The translations under genes and the position numbers were made by a program. The notes under the pieces were generated by a model. That model had not been told where the DNA came from and ran no database searches. It worked only from the letters and a program-made list of their open reading frames with translations. A DNA stretch of 35,243 bases from Pirellula sp. (GTDB lineage Bacteria > Planctomycetota > Planctomycetia > Pirellulales > Pirellulaceae): NCBI GenBank assembly GCA_025459245.1, contig JALOQZ010000010.1:1-35243 (forward strand). Reading direction: 5' to 3'. Below, in pieces: positions 24,922 through 34,198 of the stretch. The stretch's first letter is position 1. Every line of letters starts with the position of its first letter.

Positions 24922-24975
24922 TCCGAAAACCATTGGAAACCGCGGCTAGCTCCAAAGCGGCTAATGGTTTTCGGA
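24922..24975 (-). repeat. 54-bp palindromic repeat, copy A
   Basis: The outer arms TCCGAAAACCAT and ATGGTTTTCGGA are perfect 12-bp inverted repeats. The 30-bp centre contains CCGCGGCTAGC and GCGGCTAA. It is oriented opposite to copies B and C (4 mismatches to C over 54 bp). It lies in the ~200-bp gap between the HD gene and the PVC heme gene. Confidence 0.9.
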
Positions 24976-28168: not shown

Positions 28169-28222
28169 TCCGAAAACCATTAGCCGCCCTGGCGCTAGCC
28201 GCGGTTTCCGATGGTTTTCGGA
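28169..28222 (+). repeat. 54-bp palindromic repeat, copy B
   Basis: The perfect 12-bp arms extend to 15 bp here (CTATCCGAAAACCAT and ATGGTTTTCGGATAG, 28166-28180 and 28211-28225). It differs from copy C at 2 of 54 positions, in the centre only. The outer arm ends 3 bp from the cysA stop. Confidence 0.92.
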
Positions 28223-28228
28223 TAGGCT

Positions 28229-29311
28229 CTAAATACTGTAGTCGGGCACGAAGATTCGGGTGTTCGTGGGTTGAACAAAGACGGCATCTCCGGGAACAAG
28301 CCGCAGGTGCTGGAATCGCTCCATCGGCAGATCCACCCGAATCTCTTCATACTGTGCGGTGCTAAGAATCACTTTGGCTTGTGCGCCAGCCAAGTTGATG
28401 CGTTGGACTCTCGCAGCGATACTCTCATCGCTTAGCTTGTTGCGATCAACGGCCAATTCATGAGGGCGAACATAGATCTTTGCGGAGTCGCTTGCATCGG
28501 CGCCTCGACTCTCTTCACCCCTTTCCTCGCGAGCCGCCCCCCAAGTCGCCTTGCCATCCTGGACCCGTCCACGAAATACGTTCACGTTACCTAAGAAGTC
28601 AATAACGAACTCGGAGGTCGGATTATGAAAGACTTGTTCAGGCGATCCTACTTGTTCGATCTTTGCTTGATTCATAACGACCACGCGATCTGATACTTCT
28701 AACGCTTCTTCTTGATCGTGTGTTACAAGCACGGTCGTGGTATTTAGCTCGTCATGAAGTCTCCGCAACCATTGCCGCAGACTTTGTCGCACCTTGGCAT
28801 CGAGCGCACCAAAGGGTTCATCCAGCAAAAGTACACGAGGTTCGATGGCGAGCGCTCGGGCAAGCGCGACACGCTGCCGTTGACCACCAGATAGTTGCGT
28901 CGGAAATCGATCGCCGAAGCCTTCCAGTTGAATCAATCGAAGAAGTTCGCGTACTCGATCTTGAATCTCTTTCTTGCTAGGTCTCTTATCTCGAGGTCGA
29001 ACTCGCAACCCGAAGGCGATATTGTCGAAGACGGTCATGTGTTTGAAGAGGGCATAATGCTGGAATACGAAACCAACATGCCTTTTTCCTACCGGCATAC
29101 TTACAACATCCTCATCGAAAAAGAGGATTTGACTGCCCGGGTTAGAATCTGGGATATCCATCCCGGCGATGATACGCAGGAGTGTCGTTTTTCCTGAACC
29201 GGAAGGCCCCAACAGAGAGATCAACTCCCCTGTTTCAATACGCAGATTCACATCCTTCAGCGCGGTGAAAGACCCAAACGATTTGCTGATGTTTTTTATT
29301 TCGACGGACAT
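28229..29311 (-). CDS. cysA: Sulfate/thiosulfate ABC transporter ATP-binding protein
   Basis: This is the ATPase subunit of the sulfate uptake complex. Walker A is GPSGSGKTT, the ABC signature [16 protein letters not shown], Walker [13 protein letters not shown] and the switch His is in [11 protein letters not shown]-terminal regulatory TOBE-like part spans ~235-360. It has the usual length of CysA (360). It is the last gene of sbp-cysT-cysW-cysA but is separated from cysW by 127 bp that hold repeat copy C, so its expression may differ from the others. Sulfate rather than molybdate is chosen because Sbp/CysT/CysW precede it. Exact anion range cannot be told. Confidence 0.95.
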
Positions 29312-29378: not shown

Positions 29379-29432
29379 TCCGAAAACCATTAGCCGCTCC
29401 GGCGCTAGCCGCGGTTTCCGATGGTTTTCGGA
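29379..29432 (+). repeat. 54-bp palindromic repeat, copy C, inside the sulfate operon
   Basis: It has the same orientation as copy B, with 52 of 54 identical bases and perfect outer arms. It occupies the gap between the cysW stop (29439) and the cysA start (29311), so it should fold into a long hairpin in the operon mRNA. Confidence 0.92.
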
Positions 29433-29438
29433 TGGGCT

Positions 29439-30272
29439 CTATGTGGACTTCATACGACGCTCTAAGATCGTCTTGCCGATCAACGTTAATACACCTAAAC
29501 CCGCGAGAACCGATGCCAGGGCGAAAGCTGCAGCCGACTGGTATTCCGAATAAAGTGCATCGATCTGCAATGGCAGTGTATTGGTTCTCCCTCGAATATT
29601 GGAGGAAACGATGGAAACCGCGCCAAACTCACCCATGGCTCTCGCATTGCATAGCAGGACACCGTAGAGCAATGCCCATTTGATGTTGGGTAGGGTGACT
29701 TTCCAAAAGGTTTGCCATCCGTTGGCACCTAGCGATATTGCAGCCCACTCTTCGTCGCTTCCTTGCTCCTGCATGAGAGGTATCAACTCTCTCGCCACAA
29801 ACGGAAACGTTACAAAGACGGTTGCGAGTATCACGCCCGGTACACCAAAGATGACTTGGATTCCGCGATCGGAAAGCCACTCTCCCCACCAACCTTGCGA
29901 TCCGAATACAAGTACGAGCATCAATCCTGCAACGATAGGCGATATAGCGAATGGTAGATCGATGATGGTTATCAGAATGCTCTTGCCTCGAAACTGGTAC
30001 TTGGTGGTCGCCCAGGCGGCAGCGACTCCAAACACCAAATTGAGCGGTACAGCCACTCCCGCTGTCAGGAGAGTCATCTTGACCGCGCTCCAAGCGTTTC
30101 GGTCTGAGAGCGATCGAATGTAGAACGCGATCCCTTTTGCCAATGCCTCTTGAAAGATAACGATCAACGGCAACAGAAGAAGGAACGTGAGAAAGGAGAT
30201 GGTGACTCCGATCAGCAGCCATCGGACCCACCATGGATCCTGAGAATATAGTTTGGTCTTGCTAGAATCCAT
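29439..30272 (-). CDS. cysW: Sulfate ABC transporter permease CysW
   Basis: This is one of the two membrane-spanning subunits of the sulfate permease. The start is ATG 30270-30272, preceded by GGGAGG with 8 nt spacing. The open frame runs much further upstream into cysT and should not be used. The product has 277 residues and about six helices. The family pattern includes LIVIFQEALAKG, FAISPIVAGLMLVLVFGSQG (CysW-type) and the cytoplasmic EAA-like loop EEWAAISLGANGWQTFWKVTLPN, which docks on CysA. It lies 2 bp after the cysT stop, so the two are tightly coupled. Confidence 0.93.
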   Translation of the reverse strand: MDSSKTKLYSQDPWWVRWLLIGVTISFLTFLLLLPLIVIFQEALAKGIAFYIRSLSDRNAWSAVKMTLLTAGVAVPLNLVFGVAAAWATTKYQFRGKSILITIIDLPFAISPIVAGLMLVLVFGSQGWWGEWLSDRGIQVIFGVPGVILATVFVTFPFVARELIPLMQEQGSDEEWAAISLGANGWQTFWKVTLPNIKWALLYGVLLCNARAMGEFGAVSIVSSNIRGRTNTLPLQIDALYSEYQSAAAFALASVLAGLGVLTLIGKTILERRMKST

Positions 30273-30274
30273 GT

Positions 30275-31111
30275 TTAGGCCCTCCCTGTTTTCTTGTTCG
30301 CGATCCACTGGATTCCTTGCACGAGCATCAAGCTGGCAAAAGTCGCTAACAATAAAACCATGGCGACTGCGGATGCGCCCGCGATGTCCGATTCCTCGAT
30401 CTTGTTCGAGATTACAAGAGATATGATCTCCGTTTTGTTGGGCAGATTTCCTGACATATAGACAACGCTTCCGTACTCCCCGAGAGATCGAGCGAATGCC
30501 AACGTAAAACCGGTGATCATTGCAGGGAGGATGCTCGGAAAGGTTACCTTGGTGAACGTCTGCCATCGGCTAGCCCCCAAACTTGCAGCAGCCTGCTCCA
30601 TTTCAGCGTCCAATTCTTCGATCGCCGGTTGCATCGTGCGCACCACGAAGGGCAAACCGATGAAGAGTAGTGCGATTAAAACCCCCAGAAAGGAAATGGA
30701 CGTCTGAATTCCCCAAGGCAGGAGAAAGCTTCCAACGGGCCCATTGGGACCATAGATCGCCATGAGGGCGATACCGGAAACGGCAGTTGGCATCGCGAAA
30801 GGAAGATCCACAATGGCATCGAAAAACCGCGAACCGAAGAATCGATACCGGACTAGGGACCAAGCGATGATGGAACCGAAAAGCGTGTTTATTAGTGCCG
30901 CTAGAAAGGACGCTCCAAACGTTAGCCGTAGCGCCGAACTAACTCGAGGATGCGTTAAAGTAGCCGCGAGCTCCGTCCAAGGTGTCGCGGCGGACTTGAG
31001 CATCAGGGCGGTTAGAGGAATGAGCAGGATCAAAGACGAGTATAAAAGCGTATACCCGATCGTAAGACCAAAACCGGGTAAACGGTTTTGTCTCTTCAAA
31101 TTGGAAAACAT
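30275..31111 (-). CDS. cysT: Sulfate ABC transporter permease CysT (CysU)
   Basis: This is the second permease subunit of the sulfate complex. The start is ATG 31109-31111, with AAGGAAG 6 nt upstream. The upstream extension to 31204 overlaps sbp and is not supported. The product has 278 residues and about six helices, starting with IGYTLLYSSLILLIPLTALM. CysT features include VDLPFAMPTAVSGIALMAIYG and the EAA loop EMEQAAASLGASRWQTFTKVTFPS, followed by GEYGSVVYMSGN. It stops 2 bp before cysW begins and starts 23 bp after the sbp stop. Confidence 0.93.
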   Translation of the reverse strand: MFSNLKRQNRLPGFGLTIGYTLLYSSLILLIPLTALMLKSAATPWTELAATLTHPRVSSALRLTFGASFLAALINTLFGSIIAWSLVRYRFFGSRFFDAIVDLPFAMPTAVSGIALMAIYGPNGPVGSFLLPWGIQTSISFLGVLIALLFIGLPFVVRTMQPAIEELDAEMEQAAASLGASRWQTFTKVTFPSILPAMITGFTLAFARSLGEYGSVVYMSGNLPNKTEIISLVISNKIEESDIAGASAVAMVLLLATFASLMLVQGIQWIANKKTGRA

Positions 31112-31134: not shown

Positions 31135-32220
31135 TTATGGAGCGAACACTTGATCGAAGATTCCCGTTCGATCCTTGAAATGGACCTCTTGTGCTTCCTC
31201 CCAATCACGGACGATATCTGATAGCGCGAAGAGCTTCAGATCGACAAAGTTCTTCTTTGTCTCTTCGGTCAGCGCATTCGAGTTGCGGGGGCGATAAAAA
31301 TGCTTGGCTGCCAAACGTTGACCTTCGTCGCTATAGAGGTATTCAAGATAAGCAGCCGCGACTTGATTCGTACCATGCTTGTTCGCGTTTTGCGTGACAA
31401 CGGCAACAGGAGGCTCTGCCAAAATACTAAGGCTTGGTACGACGATCTCGACTTCACTTTGCCCCGATTCTCGCAACGCCAAGAAAGCTTCATTCTCCCA
31501 AGCGAGGAGGACATCGCCGATCTTGCGTTGCAGGAACGTATTGGTCGCAGCCCGAGCAGCCGTATCGAGAACCGGAACATTCTTGTACAGCTTGCCAATG
31601 AACTCTTTTGCCTTAACCTTCGCTGCCTCGACTTCAGCCTCTTTGCTCGGATCCTTGATGACCGCCAAATCGCCGAGTTCTTTTTGAAGTGCAAAGCCCC
31701 AAGCAGCAAGGTAGTTCCAACGCGCTCCACCACCAGTCTTGGGATTCGGGGTGATCACCTCGACTCCGTCTCGAACGAGATCGTCCCAGTCTCGAATATT
31801 CTTGGGATTCCCCTTCCGAACCAAAAACACAATCGTCGATGTGTAGGGCGAACTATTGTGAGGAAGCTTCGTCTGCCAATCCGGATCGAGGCGCTTAGAA
31901 CTCTTTGCGATCAAATCGATATCTCCCGCCAAAGCGAGCGAGACCACATCCGCATCAAGTCCTTCATTCACCGCACGGGCTTGCTTTCCTGAGCCGCCGT
32001 GGGATTGGTCGATCAGGACCGTTTGCCCCGTCTCTTTCTCCCAATGCTTGGCAAATGTCTCATTGAACTCAACATAAAACTCGCGAGTCGGATCGTAGGA
32101 GACGTTGAGAAGCTTTACCGAACCGGCTCTCCCCCCTGGAGAGGATTCTTCGCTGCTCGAGCAGCCTTGCAAGACTCCGAGCGCTACTAATCCGACTGCG
32201 AAAAGCGACTTTGCATGCAT
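31135..32220 (-). CDS. sbp: Sulfate-binding lipoprotein of the sulfate ABC transporter
   Basis: This is an exported sulfate-binding protein anchored by a lipobox ([15 protein letters not shown], Cys ~19) rather than free in the periplasm. The start ATG 32218-32220 has AAGG 7 nt upstream; the longer frame to 32316 would run into the promoter region. The mature part shows the family signatures [35 protein letters not shown] and [18 protein letters not shown] (the sulfate-binding Ser/Gly residues), with [14 protein letters not shown] further on. Length (361) is usual. It heads the operon sbp-cysT-cysW-cysA. A sigma-54 -24/-12 match lies 67-82 bp upstream of the ATG, divergent from the activator gene. 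Confidence 0.94.
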
Positions 32221-32286: not shown

Positions 32287-32302
32287 TGCAAACTCGGGGC
32301 CA
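32287..32302 (-). promoter_or_regulatory. Sigma-54 (-24/-12) promoter match for the sulfate operon
   Basis: On the minus strand the sequence is TGGCCC-CGAGT-TTGCA. It matches the consensus TGGCAC-N5-TTGCW in all bases but one and keeps the essential GG-N10-GC core. Transcription would begin about 11-13 bp downstream, near 32277, leaving a leader of about 55 bases before sbp. Basis: sequence match; activity is not shown. Confidence 0.65.
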
Positions 32303-32342
32303 TACCTTGATCCCATCCAGGGCTAAACCGTTCGCATCATCG

Positions 32343-32359
32343 AATTTGCTGAGCAAATT
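32343..32359. promoter_or_regulatory. Palindrome, possible activator site 1
   Basis: AATTTGC-TGA-GCAAATT is a perfect inverted repeat of 7 bp with a 3-bp centre. Its centre is about 74 bp upstream of the inferred sbp transcription start and about 145 bp upstream of that of the activator, which fits an enhancer-like site for a sigma-54 activator. Confidence 0.45.
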
Positions 32360-32421
32360 GACCAAGAAAAAATCTTCTCCCCCCAGGATGCGCGACGGGG
32401 AACGGCACCAAAAAGCCGTCA

Positions 32422-32451
32422 TATATCACGGCCGTGTGTTATATTTCACGG
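32422..32451. promoter_or_regulatory. Palindrome and near-repeat, possible activator site 2
   Basis: CACGGCCGTG (32427-32436) is a perfect 10-bp palindrome embedded in a larger imperfect one (ATAT...TATAT). The half-site TATATCACGG recurs as TATATTTCACGG 18 bp further on. It lies about 150 bp upstream of the inferred sbp start. Confidence 0.4.
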
Positions 32452-32468
32452 GATCCTGTGGCCGGCGA

Positions 32469-32484
32469 TGGCTTGTCTATTGCG
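32469..32484 (+). promoter_or_regulatory. Sigma-54 (-24/-12) promoter match for the activator gene
   Basis: On the plus strand TGGCTT-GTCTA-TTGCG keeps TGGC-N7-TTGC and the GG-N10-GC core. It is weaker than the opposite one (the AC of TGGCAC is TT). Transcription would start near 32495, about 110 bases before the activator ATG, implying autoregulation. Confidence 0.45.
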
Positions 32485-32605
32485 ATTCCAAGGCGTTGGG
32501 GAGATCGGCCGTTCGGCACAGGATTCGCAAACTGAGGACAGCCAGCGATCGATGGAAGAGCCATCGCGCAATGGATTCTAGGAAACGAACCGAAGCGAAT
32601 ACAGA

Positions 32606-34198
32606 ATGGATTGGTGGGAACAAGTCTATCGAGCGGAATCGACGATGGGAGCCATTCAAAGGCTGCTCCAGTCGCTGCGACAGGAACTACCGGTTCAAAG
32701 TCTAGTCCTGTACCAGCTGGATCCGGCGCAGCGGGCAGCCAACGTTGTATGCGCGGCAACGCAAGGGCCCATACCCGTCGATGTCCGAACTATTCGTTGC
32801 ACCGAGTCGAAATGGACCGAGTTGGTCGCTTGGCTGGACGAAGGTGAGGTATTGCGGCAGCATGGGCCGCGTAGGAGCGGTAAGCTCGCGTATTTAACAC
32901 CAGACTCCTACACCGGCTACTCGGTCGGTATTCCACTTCGCGGGCTTCAATTGGGTGTGGGTGGACAATCGGGCCTGGTGATATTGGAGATCGAGCATGG
33001 TCGAGCTGTTCGGGATGATCAATGGCAAGTGATGGAGCGGCTGCGTGGCCCCCTTTGGTTTTTGTTATTGGCAGCTAATGCGAAGCTGACTCAATCCGGC
33101 GAGTCAAGCTCGCTCGAGGAAGGACCTTCGGCGACAAAGGATATCATCGTAGGGGCAGATTCGGGGCTTCGATCGGTCATGGAGCGAGTCGAGATCGTGG
33201 CTCCCTCCGACATGCCTGTACTCATCCTTGGAGATACAGGAACAGGGAAAGAGGTTGTTGCGCGCGCCATCCACCAGAGATCCTCTCGCGCGGGCAAGCC
33301 GTTTATCCGAGTCAATTGCGGCGCCATTCCACCAGAGCTTATCGACTCACAGCTTTTCGGACACGAACGAGGTAGCTTCACCGGAGCATCCGATCAACGC
33401 AAAGGTTGGTTTGAAAGAGCCGACGGCGGGACTCTCTTTTTGGATGAAATCGGGGAATTGCCGTTGGCCGCACAAGTAAGATTGTTGCGAGTGCTTCAAG
33501 AGCATCAGATCGAACGCGTCGGCGGGGAGGAGTGGATTCATGTCGATGTTCGCATTGTCGCCGCCACCCACCGCGACCTGGCCAGCATGGTCCATCAAAG
33601 GACGTTTCGGGAAGACCTTTGGTATCGGATCAACATGTTTCCCATTTTGCTCCCAAGGCTTTGCGAACGGATCGAAGATATTCCTGCCTTAGCTCGACAC
33701 TTTTCCAAACGAGCATCGGCTAATTTTGGGCTTCCCTATGTCGAGCTAGTATCGAGCGATATTAAACAGCTCATCGAGTATCGATGGCCGGGAAACATAC
33801 GCGAACTCCAAGCGGTCATTGATCGAGCGGTCATCCTCGGACGAGGCATCAAGCTCGATATTGAAAATGCGTTGGGAATTGGGATCGCAACGAGATACGA
33901 ACCCGCTGTCGAGACCGATGAACCAACTTTCTATGAAGTCATCCCCGAGCAACCTGTTCGACGAATCGTGGAATCGGCGGACAAACCTGCATCGCGAGTA
34001 GACAATGAATCCGAATTAGAACTCGATGCGTTGGATCAAGCGATCCGAAGACATATCGAGAAGGCGTTGGTGTTGACCCAAGGTCAGATCGAAGGGAAGC
34101 GTGGGGCTGCTCATTTCTTGAAGATCAATCCACATACCTTGCGAGCGAAAATGCGAAAGCTGGGAATCGATTGGAATCAATTTCGCGAGACTTCTTGA
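32606..34198 (+). CDS. Sigma-54-dependent transcriptional activator (GAF-AAA+-Fis HTH)
   Basis: This is a bacterial enhancer-binding protein of 530 residues. Residues ~10-160 look like a GAF-type sensory domain, not a phosphorylatable receiver. The AAA+ domain (~180-415) has Walker A GDTGTGKE (209-216), the sigma-54 contact loop GSFTGA (256-261) in place of GAFTGA, Walker B GTLFLDE (275-281) and the arginine-finger region FREDLWYRIN. After an acidic linker, residues ~485-525 form a Fis-type HTH (QGQIEGKRGAAHFLKINPHT). The divergent sulfate operon with its sigma-54-like promoter suggests that it activates sulfate uptake in response to a small ligand. Which ligand is unknown. The ATG follows no strong ribosome binding site. 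Confidence 0.93.
   Translation: MDWWEQVYRAESTMGAIQRLLQSLRQELPVQSLVLYQLDPAQRAANVVCAATQGPIPVDVRTIRCTESKWTELVAWLDEGEVLRQHGPRRSGKLAYLTPDSYTGYSVGIPLRGLQLGVGGQSGLVILEIEHGRAVRDDQWQVMERLRGPLWFLLLAANAKLTQSGESSSLEEGPSATKDIIVGADSGLRSVMERVEIVAPSDMPVLILGDTGTGKEVVARAIHQRSSRAGKPFIRVNCGAIPPELIDSQLFGHERGSFTGASDQRKGWFERADGGTLFLDEIGELPLAAQVRLLRVLQEHQIERVGGEEWIHVDVRIVAATHRDLASMVHQRTFREDLWYRINMFPILLPRLCERIEDIPALARHFSKRASANFGLPYVELVSSDIKQLIEYRWPGNIRELQAVIDRAVILGRGIKLDIENALGIGIATRYEPAVETDEPTFYEVIPEQPVRRIVESADKPASRVDNESELELDALDQAIRRHIEKALVLTQGQIEGKRGAAHFLKINPHTLRAKMRKLGIDWNQFRETS

What the first reader, a model, noticed from the sequence alone, without database searches (positions are those of the whole stretch)
32287..32484. 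Divergent sigma-54 promoters around two palindromes between sulfate operon and activator gene
Seen: TGGC-N7-TTGC occurs on the minus strand (32302-32287) facing sbp and on the plus strand (32469-32484) facing the activator gene, each with the GG-N10-GC core. Two palindromes (32343-32359, 32427-32436) lie between. Eight fixed bases should occur about once in 65,000 positions, so two correctly oriented hits in about 770 positions are unlikely by chance. Known: sigma-54 activators bind sites about 80-150 bp upstream and often lie beside their targets. Inference: sulfate uptake in this planctomycete is a sigma-54 regulon with an autoregulated local activator, unlike the CysB or CymR systems of model bacteria.
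Basis: partly seen in the sequence, partly recalled or inferred. Interest (0 to 1): 0.75.

Follow-up and report, generated by a model that had tools for sequence, protein, structure and literature searches.

The report
Sigma-54 switch for sulfate uptake
Beside the sulfate-uptake genes of a planctomycete lies a sigma-54 promoter with an array of palindromic activator-binding sites and the likely activator gene, and the same arrangement recurs next to sulfate- and cysteine-assimilation genes in other bacteria, which points to a widespread and apparently undescribed way of controlling sulfur uptake.

Summary
The sbp-facing box is strongly supported: boxes facing sbp (core at least 3 of 4) occur in 45 of 59 sbp upstream regions, 6 of 59 in reversed sequence. 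Its strict pattern has one place in this 4.5-Mb genome, 32416-32431. The activator-facing box at 32469 is absent in the nearest relative; another, weaker element at 32514-32529 is conserved there. The activator belongs to a family of GAF-type sigma-54 activators: 25 of 26 family genomes with sbp have it, 9 of 173 without sbp do. Elsewhere it stands beside cysK, ATP sulfurylase, APS kinase or TauE genes. Best reading: a sigma-54 enhancer-binding protein that turns on sulfate assimilation; I found no description of this regulon. The inducing signal and the mode of autoregulation are inferred or open.

The parts
32287..32302 (-). Sigma-54 (-24/-12) element facing sbp, TGGCCCCGAGTTTGCA; predicted transcription start about 32276
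   Evidence: conserved in G105; facing elements with core >=3/4 in 45 of 59 sbp upstream regions, 6 of 59 reversed
32416..32431 (.). Activator operator (UAS) 1, CCGTCATATATCACGG, centred about -147 from the predicted sbp start
   Evidence: PWM score 21.2; only strict match in the window's genome; spacing. That the activator binds it is inferred.
32436..32451 (.). Activator operator (UAS) 2, GTGTTATATTTCACGG, degenerate left half, 20 bp from UAS 1, about -167
   Evidence: PWM score 13.6; largely conserved in G105
32514..32529 (+). Candidate sigma-54 element facing the activator, CGGCACAGGATTCGCA (two of eight core bases differ); operators would be at -116/-96
   Evidence: 14 identical bases in G105; operators at -93..-97 in 5 of 61 loci, all in or near the window's genus; best reversed-control window 4: suggestive only
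32469..32484 (+).
   Evidence: not conserved in G105; operators would be at -71/-51
32606..34198 (+). Activator gene, 530 aa: GAF-like N-terminal domain, sigma-54-interacting AAA+ domain with GSFTGA loop, C-terminal region with a conserved helix-turn-helix-like stretch
31135..32220 (-). sbp, sulfate-binding lipoprotein; likely start ATG at 32220 (the longest ORF starts at 32316, upstream of the predicted transcription start)
   Evidence: sulfate ABC transporter substrate-binding protein, 433 bits, cut-off 288
30275..31111 (-). cysT, sulfate permease subunit
   Evidence: TIGR02139, 337 bits, cut-off 246
29439..30272 (-). cysW, sulfate permease subunit
   Evidence: TIGR02140, 401 bits, cut-off 329
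28229..29311 (-). cysA, sulfate transporter ATPase
   Evidence: TIGR00968, 378 bits, cut-off 343

Best explanation
The gap holds the control region of a sigma-54 regulon for sulfate assimilation. RNA polymerase with sigma-54 binds the -24/-12 element at 32302-32287 and waits closed. The neighbouring activator, an enhancer-binding protein with a GAF-like sensing domain, binds an array of 16-bp palindromes (32416-32431, 32436-32451) and by DNA looping opens transcription of sbp-cysT-cysW-cysA. Shown by sequence comparison: the promoter element, the operator, their fixed spacing in many loci, the gene link and the co-occurrence. Inferred: that this activator binds the operator, that sulfur limitation is the inducing condition, that the GAF-like domain senses a sulfur metabolite, and that the operators beside the activator gene also regulate it (as activator through 32514-32529 in this clade, or as repressor).
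For: (1) Facing TGGC-N7-TTGC within 350 bp of sbp in 26 of 59 regions, 3 reversed; core >=3/4 in 45, 6 reversed. (2) A PWM whose sites came from 14 regions finds sites (score >=12) in 32 of 45 other regions; 500 column-permuted PWMs average 0.45 regions, maximum 4; 0 of 44 control stretches inside sbp. (3) Geometry: operator centre at -104..-107 in 19 of 59 loci, -127..-130 in 16, -147..-150 in 10; mean per 4-bp window 1.86; reversed control 0 (box score >=5). (4) sbp in 26 of 199 family genomes, activator in 34, both in 25; Fisher p 3e-23, not corrected for kinship. (5) sbp copies not next to the activator: L172 and L173 (activator on another contig) have operators and a 4/4 box; L174 has operators without a well-placed box. 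(6) Box and operators also stand between the activator and cysK, ATP sulfurylase or TauE. (7) rpoN is in this genome; the activator has the GSFTGA loop.
Against: No experiment; starts are not mapped. 8 of 59 sbp regions have no operator at score >=9 and 13 of 59 no box at my score >=5; for three of these (L063, L064, L079) both elements stand before an upstream gene of the operon, the others are unexplained. The window's operators sit at -147/-167, not at the common -106/-127. At cysK the spacing differs: -154/-196/-216 in three loci, -220/-262/-282 in two, -54/-96/-116, -140/-222 and -640 or more in one each. The APS kinase neighbours (L092, L096) have operators but no box >=5. In 11 genomes 35 places match the strict operator pattern, by my count 14 of them in the activator-sbp gap; the reversed control has 17 places. 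Many loci are related, so counts are not independent.
Confidence: 0.86

Rival explanations
1. One reading: the activator is transcribed from the sigma-54 box at 32469-32484 and activates itself.
For: The box has all eight core bases. 4/4 boxes face the activator in 5 of 61 regions, 0 reversed.
Against: Absent at the aligned place in G105; operators would lie at -71/-51; the five 4/4 hits lie 49-253 bp from the start codon with no common spacing, and those of L054 and L065 overlap operator-like sites.
Confidence: 0.08
2. The activator is transcribed from the conserved element at 32514-32529 with operators at -116/-96, so the two promoters are divergent after all, from another box than the reader's.
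For: 14 identical bases in G105; operators at -93..-97 in window, L040, L041, L045, L087. Elements with core >=3/4, not over operators, face the activator in 17 of 61 regions, 4 reversed.
Against: Two of eight core bases differ; the fixed spacing shows only in the window's close relatives, and the reversed control reaches 4 loci in its best window; with a stricter box score only 3 of 61 (0 reversed) have an operator at -85 to -180. In many other loci the operators are 40-100 bp from the start codon (71 of 109 matches), which leaves no room.
Confidence: 0.4
3. The palindrome is the operator of another regulator, or the family protein represses rather than activates, and the sigma-54 boxes are incidental.
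For: Operators lie close to the activator gene in 52 of 61 loci, as repressor operators would. G010 and G074 carry a good palindrome upstream of an encapsulin gene but have no orthologue at my cut-off.
Against: Fixed spacing of operator to box; 79 of 120 sites (score >=13) in 68 fetched loci lie in the 4.5% of bases within 500 bp upstream of activator or sbp; co-occurrence.
Confidence: 0.08
4. Chance: boxes and palindromes are random matches in a gap of about 385 bp.
For: The box pattern is common in this genome, 301 copies.
Against: The comparative evidence for the sbp side.
Confidence: 0.02

Closest known systems
NtrC/NorR/NifA-type bacterial enhancer-binding proteins (the general kind)
   Same: Sigma-54-interacting AAA+ domain with GAFTGA-type loop, -24/-12 promoter, palindromic upstream sites
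   Different: Below the NCBIfam cut-off of each of the 25 models shown of 28 (NorR 327 against 476, NifA 329 against 529); its own operator; sulfur genes as targets
SfnR of Pseudomonas (function recalled; papers seen only as a search listing)
   Same: Sigma-54 activator in the response to sulfate starvation (recalled)
   Different: Acts on organosulfur monooxygenase genes (recalled), not on the sulfate transporter; sequence relation not tested
FisR of Cupriavidus pinatubonensis (title seen in the reference list of PMC12170894)
   Different: Its targets are sulfide-oxidising genes; sequence relation not tested
CdsR of Clostridiales (passages of PMC6615313)
   Same: Sigma-54 promoter plus upstream activator site at a cysteine gene, inferred by comparative genomics
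   Different: Controls cysteine catabolism (cdsB), not sulfate uptake or cysteine synthesis
TSUP and PSE transporter operons in the sigma-54 regulome of Desulfovibrio vulgaris (passages of PMC4641369)
   Same: Sigma-54 control of possible sulfur-oxyanion transporters; TauE-like genes occur beside this activator too
   Different: Substrates unknown according to that paper; other activators; not the sulfate ABC transporter
CysB (enterobacteria) and CymR (bacilli), recalled
   Same: Same physiological role, control of sulfate uptake and cysteine synthesis
   Different: LysR-type and Rrf2-type regulators that do not work through sigma-54 (recalled)

Membership tests
Sigma-54 enhancer-binding protein | Sigma-54 interaction AAA+ domain | tested here: met
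   PF00158, 243 bits, residues 181-347
Sigma-54 enhancer-binding protein | GAFTGA-type loop | tested here: met
   GSFTGA in 16 of 17 aligned members, GAFTGA in one
Sigma-54 enhancer-binding protein | C-terminal helix-turn-helix | tested here: inconclusive
   Strongly conserved stretch EGxRGAA..LxINPHTLRA.MRKLGI, but no Pfam HTH hit for P0001 at 1e-3
GAF-type sensing domain (N-terminal) | Match to GAF profiles | tested here: met
   14 of 27 members match GAF_3 at E <=1, best 5.6e-6; the window's own only 0.15, under the curated cut-off; family profile matches GAF chain 2vjw at 1e-4. Met for the family, weak for the window protein alone; no structure model.
Sigma-54 promoter (sbp side) | TGGC-N7-TTGC facing the gene, conserved in relatives | tested here: met
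Sigma-54 promoter (sbp side) | Mapped start about 12 bp downstream; loss in an rpoN mutant | not testable with these tools
   needs RNA and mutants
Sigma-54 promoter (activator side, 32469) | Conservation in relatives | tested here: not met
   absent at the aligned place in G105
Sigma-54 promoter (activator side, 32514) | Conservation and fixed distance to operators | tested here: inconclusive
   conserved in G105; 5 of 61 loci with operators at -93..-97, reversed control up to 4
NorR, NifA, NtrC and other activators named in NCBIfam | Score over the curated cut-off | tested here: not met
   25 of 28 matching families are shown, each below its cut-off
SfnR, FisR | Orthology by sequence or tree | not tested
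   no reference sequences were fetched

The most novel reading that the evidence does not exclude
One sigma-54 activator family governs sulfur assimilation in several phyla through a single palindromic operator held at a fixed distance from the promoter, and in some planctomycetes its regulon reaches the family 2B encapsulin, an adjacent cysteine desulfurase and cysteine synthase, tying sulfate uptake to sulfur handling in a protein nanocompartment.
Probability: 0.35. Interest if true: 0.78.

Novelty: new member of a known kind. Interest (0 to 1): 0.62.

Why it matters
Control of sulfate uptake is known mainly from CysB- and CymR-type regulators (recalled). Here a sigma-54 enhancer mechanism seems to do that job in planctomycetes and, going by record titles of mostly metagenome-assembled genomes, also in Gemmatimonadota, Krumholzibacteriota, Latescibacterota and Deltaproteobacteria. 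The result gives an operator motif, a promoter geometry and a functional annotation for a family of unnamed activators, and makes the control of sulfur metabolism in planctomycetes directly testable.

Tried and rejected
Led nowhere: of the one-mismatch operator places in G000 (34 places with the strict one; reversed control 32; not all listed) I fetched four; all four lie in reading frames and none has a well-placed box, so no second target is claimed in the window's own genome. In G105 I fetched five one-mismatch places; one precedes an encapsulin gene; two further strict places in G105 were not examined. The encapsulin lead is uneven: of 14 loci 12 could be read, 7 of 12 have a site at score >=10, only G105 has a box at a sensible distance; where two encapsulin copies stand in tandem, the start that was read may be that of the second. 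The tree kept 93 of 93 family sequences apart from 8 other activators, but support at that node is low, 0.128, so monophyly is not proved. Structure prediction gave nothing. Paper searches that found no description of this regulon: (open-access library only).

The orthologue cut (E 1e-99 or better; next matches 1e-87) was set by eye. Fifteen gaps were scanned to refine the PWM; L071 gave no site and is counted with the held-out regions; some held-out loci are close relatives of training loci.

Full report
What is in the window. sbp (likely start ATG 32220, lipobox LQGC), cysT, cysW and cysA run on the minus strand; the activator runs on the plus strand from 32606. Between the two starts lie 385 bases. 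The motif is not rare in this genome: 301 copies in 4.53 Mb, 200 for the reversed pattern; the window has five, 1.12 expected. rpoN is present.

The gene pair. The activator has a clear set of orthologues: 34 of 199 genomes of the same family, the window's own included, with a gap in score to the next activators (cut set by eye). sbp is in 26 of 199. Both are in 25; the one sbp genome without an orthologue, G089, is 72% complete. In the same genus 9 of 14 genomes have both and 5 of 14 neither. Fisher p is 3e-23, not corrected for kinship. In 15 loci, the window's included, the two genes stand head to head.

The promoter. Each of the 15 head-to-head gaps has an sbp-facing GG-N10-GC element with at least three of the four other core bases, 11 of them with all four. 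Over 59 sbp upstream regions, last 350 bases: 4/4 core in 26, reversed 3; >=3/4 in 45, reversed 6; on the opposite strand 3 (reversed 0) and 19 (reversed 1). In G105, the nearest relative in that search (activator 82% identical), the sbp-facing element is conserved and the activator-facing one at 32469 is not.

The operator. Reading the gaps side by side showed a 16-bp palindrome, about CCRTSATATATSAYGG, in arrays. A PWM seeded with it and refined on the gaps (42 sites from 14 regions) was tested on 45 other regions: 32 of 45 hold a site at score >=12; 500 PWMs with permuted columns reach on average 0.45 regions and at most 4; 44 control stretches inside sbp hold none. The strict pattern has one place in the window's genome, in this gap. 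Over 11 genomes it has 35 places, by my count 14 of them in the activator-sbp gap, and the reversed control 17 places; G123 has none and the one place in G177 is elsewhere. With one mismatch it is hardly more common than its control (34 against 32 places in G000, 50 against 37 in G105), so only strong or paired sites mean much. In 68 fetched loci 79 of 120 sites at score >=13 lie in the 4.5% of bases within 500 bp upstream of activator or sbp; many of the others lie in the gap between activator and cysK.

Geometry. Measured from the predicted start, an operator is centred at -104..-107 in 19 of 59 loci, -127..-130 in 16 and -147..-150 in 10, against a mean of 1.86 per 4-bp window and 0 for the reversed control. 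Taking only the best box per region the first figure is 17 of 59, 11 of these held out of training. Window and G105 (L040) have -147/-167 and -156/-176. In 37 of 59 regions the best box (score >=5) has an operator at -85 to -180. Not fitting: 8 of 59 without an operator at >=9, 13 of 59 with the best box under 5. Three of these (L063, L064, L079) have both elements before an upstream gene of the operon; the rest I cannot explain.

sbp away from the activator. Six sbp regions not next to an activator were fetched. L172 and L173 have operators and a 4/4 box; L174 has three operators but no well-placed box; L171 (G089, no orthologue found) has three operators and a 3/4 box; L175, a second sbp copy, has one weak site; L176 has no upstream sequence.

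Other neighbours. A search with the C-terminal alignment in named genomes kept the best 80 of 230 loci; 68 after dropping duplicates. 35 of the 68 have sbp in the fetched stretch. By record title they include Gemmatimonadota (L104, on a 4.7-Mb chromosome record), Krumholzibacteriota (L136), Deltaproteobacteria (L121), Phycisphaeraceae (L145) and Sandaracinaceae (L148, with only 34% identical sbp); L121 and L145 have operators but no box at score >=5. A cysK cluster recurs in 12 of 102 loci (L112 is cysteine synthase A by NCBIfam): upstream of cysK 7 of 12 have a 4/4 box and 6 of 12 an operator within 500 bases; the spacing there is not that of sbp. Divergent to the activator stand ATP sulfurylase in L085 (box TGGAACGGGTTTTGCG, operators -108/-130/-150), TauE/SafE in L119 (Pfam) and L150 (by likeness, not scanned) with box and operators, and APS kinase in L092 (Pfam) and L096 (by likeness) with operators but no good box. 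Several loci show no recognisable sulfur neighbour (for example L088, L091, L097, L111, L134, read by eye). Operators stand within 300 bases upstream of the activator gene in 52 of 61 loci; 85 of 109 matches are 20-120 bases from its start.

Does the activator have its own sigma-54 promoter? 4/4 boxes face it in 5 of 61 regions (0 reversed) at unrelated distances; elements with >=3/4, not over operators, in 17 of 61 (4 reversed). In the window and close relatives weaker elements recur with the operator at -93..-97 (window, L040, L041, L045, L087); the window's is 32514-32529, identical to G105 over 14 bases. The reversed control reaches 4 loci in its best window, so this is a lead. In many other loci there is no room between operator and gene; repression of its own gene is as likely there.

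The sensor. 14 of 27 N-terminal domains match GAF_3 in Pfam (best 5.6e-6; the window's 0.15), and the profile finds a solved GAF protein at 1e-4. A cysteine near residue 69 of the window protein is shared by near relatives but not by all, so a cysteine-based sensor common to the family is unlikely. The ligand is unknown.

Encapsulin lead. In L105 the activator is followed by a family 2B encapsulin (over cut-off), a cysteine desulfurase (SufS model over cut-off; the encapsulin-cargo model below its cut-off) and a gene of the cysK cluster, with operator-like sites at the end of the activator gene. In G105 one of five fetched one-mismatch sites stands before an encapsulin 2B gene, with a 3/4 box 141 bases on. 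Encapsulin 2B is over cut-off in 14 of 199 genomes, 12 of these with the activator (p 7e-9, not corrected for kinship); the window's own genome, 82% complete, has none over cut-off. Of 12 readable upstream regions 7 have a site at >=10, only one has a plausible box, and two with good sites (G010, G074) lack the activator. This stays a lead.

Literature. I saw passages of PMC6615313, PMC4641369, PMC12170894 and PMC3162934, and otherwise search listings only. None of these passages describes a sigma-54 activator of the sulfate transporter; the library lacks most subscription journals. SfnR, CysB and CymR are recalled.

Verdict. Mechanistically this is a classical enhancer system; what appears new is the activator family, its operator and its regulon.

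Noticed in passing
28170-28232, 29380-29441, 24957-24974: A REP-like palindromic element flanks cysA; its 18-base end occurs 57 times in the genome (29+28, reversed control 0) and one copy folds far better than shuffles (z -5.3).
   Followed up: partly
L105:10446-14938; L186:1822-3582; G162:C284:5901-7517 (L196): Family 2B encapsulin genes with operator-like palindromes nearby; in L105 next to the activator, a cysteine desulfurase and a cysK-type gene.
   Followed up: partly
L064:4394-5977 and other loci: A small lipoprotein and a DUF1559 pseudopilin gene recur near the activator or in the sulfate operon (17 and 19 of 102 loci); in L063 and L064 box and operators stand before them. DUF1559 genes are numerous in planctomycetes (recalled), so part of this may be chance.
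   Followed up: partly
L202 (G074) and L201 (G010), upstream of encapsulin: Strong palindrome CCGTCAAATATGACGG (21.7) in G074 and a weaker one (17.2) in G010, genomes without an orthologue of the activator at the cut used; it lies just before a terminator-like hairpin (by eye).
   Followed up: partly
L068:3371-5155: An activator relative in a genome without sbp stands divergent to an SLC13-type transporter (CitMHS and Na_sulph_symp matches), with only weak operator-like sites.
   Followed up: no
L148:1466-1519: A further array of three operator-like sites in a Sandaracinaceae locus, far from activator and sbp; the gene it might serve was not identified.
   Followed up: no
L114:5962-6885 and L140: Two activator relatives in Planctomycetaceae records stand near a HAD-type hydrolase gene on the other strand (L114 by Pfam; L140 by likeness), with operator sites in the gap.
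   Followed up: no
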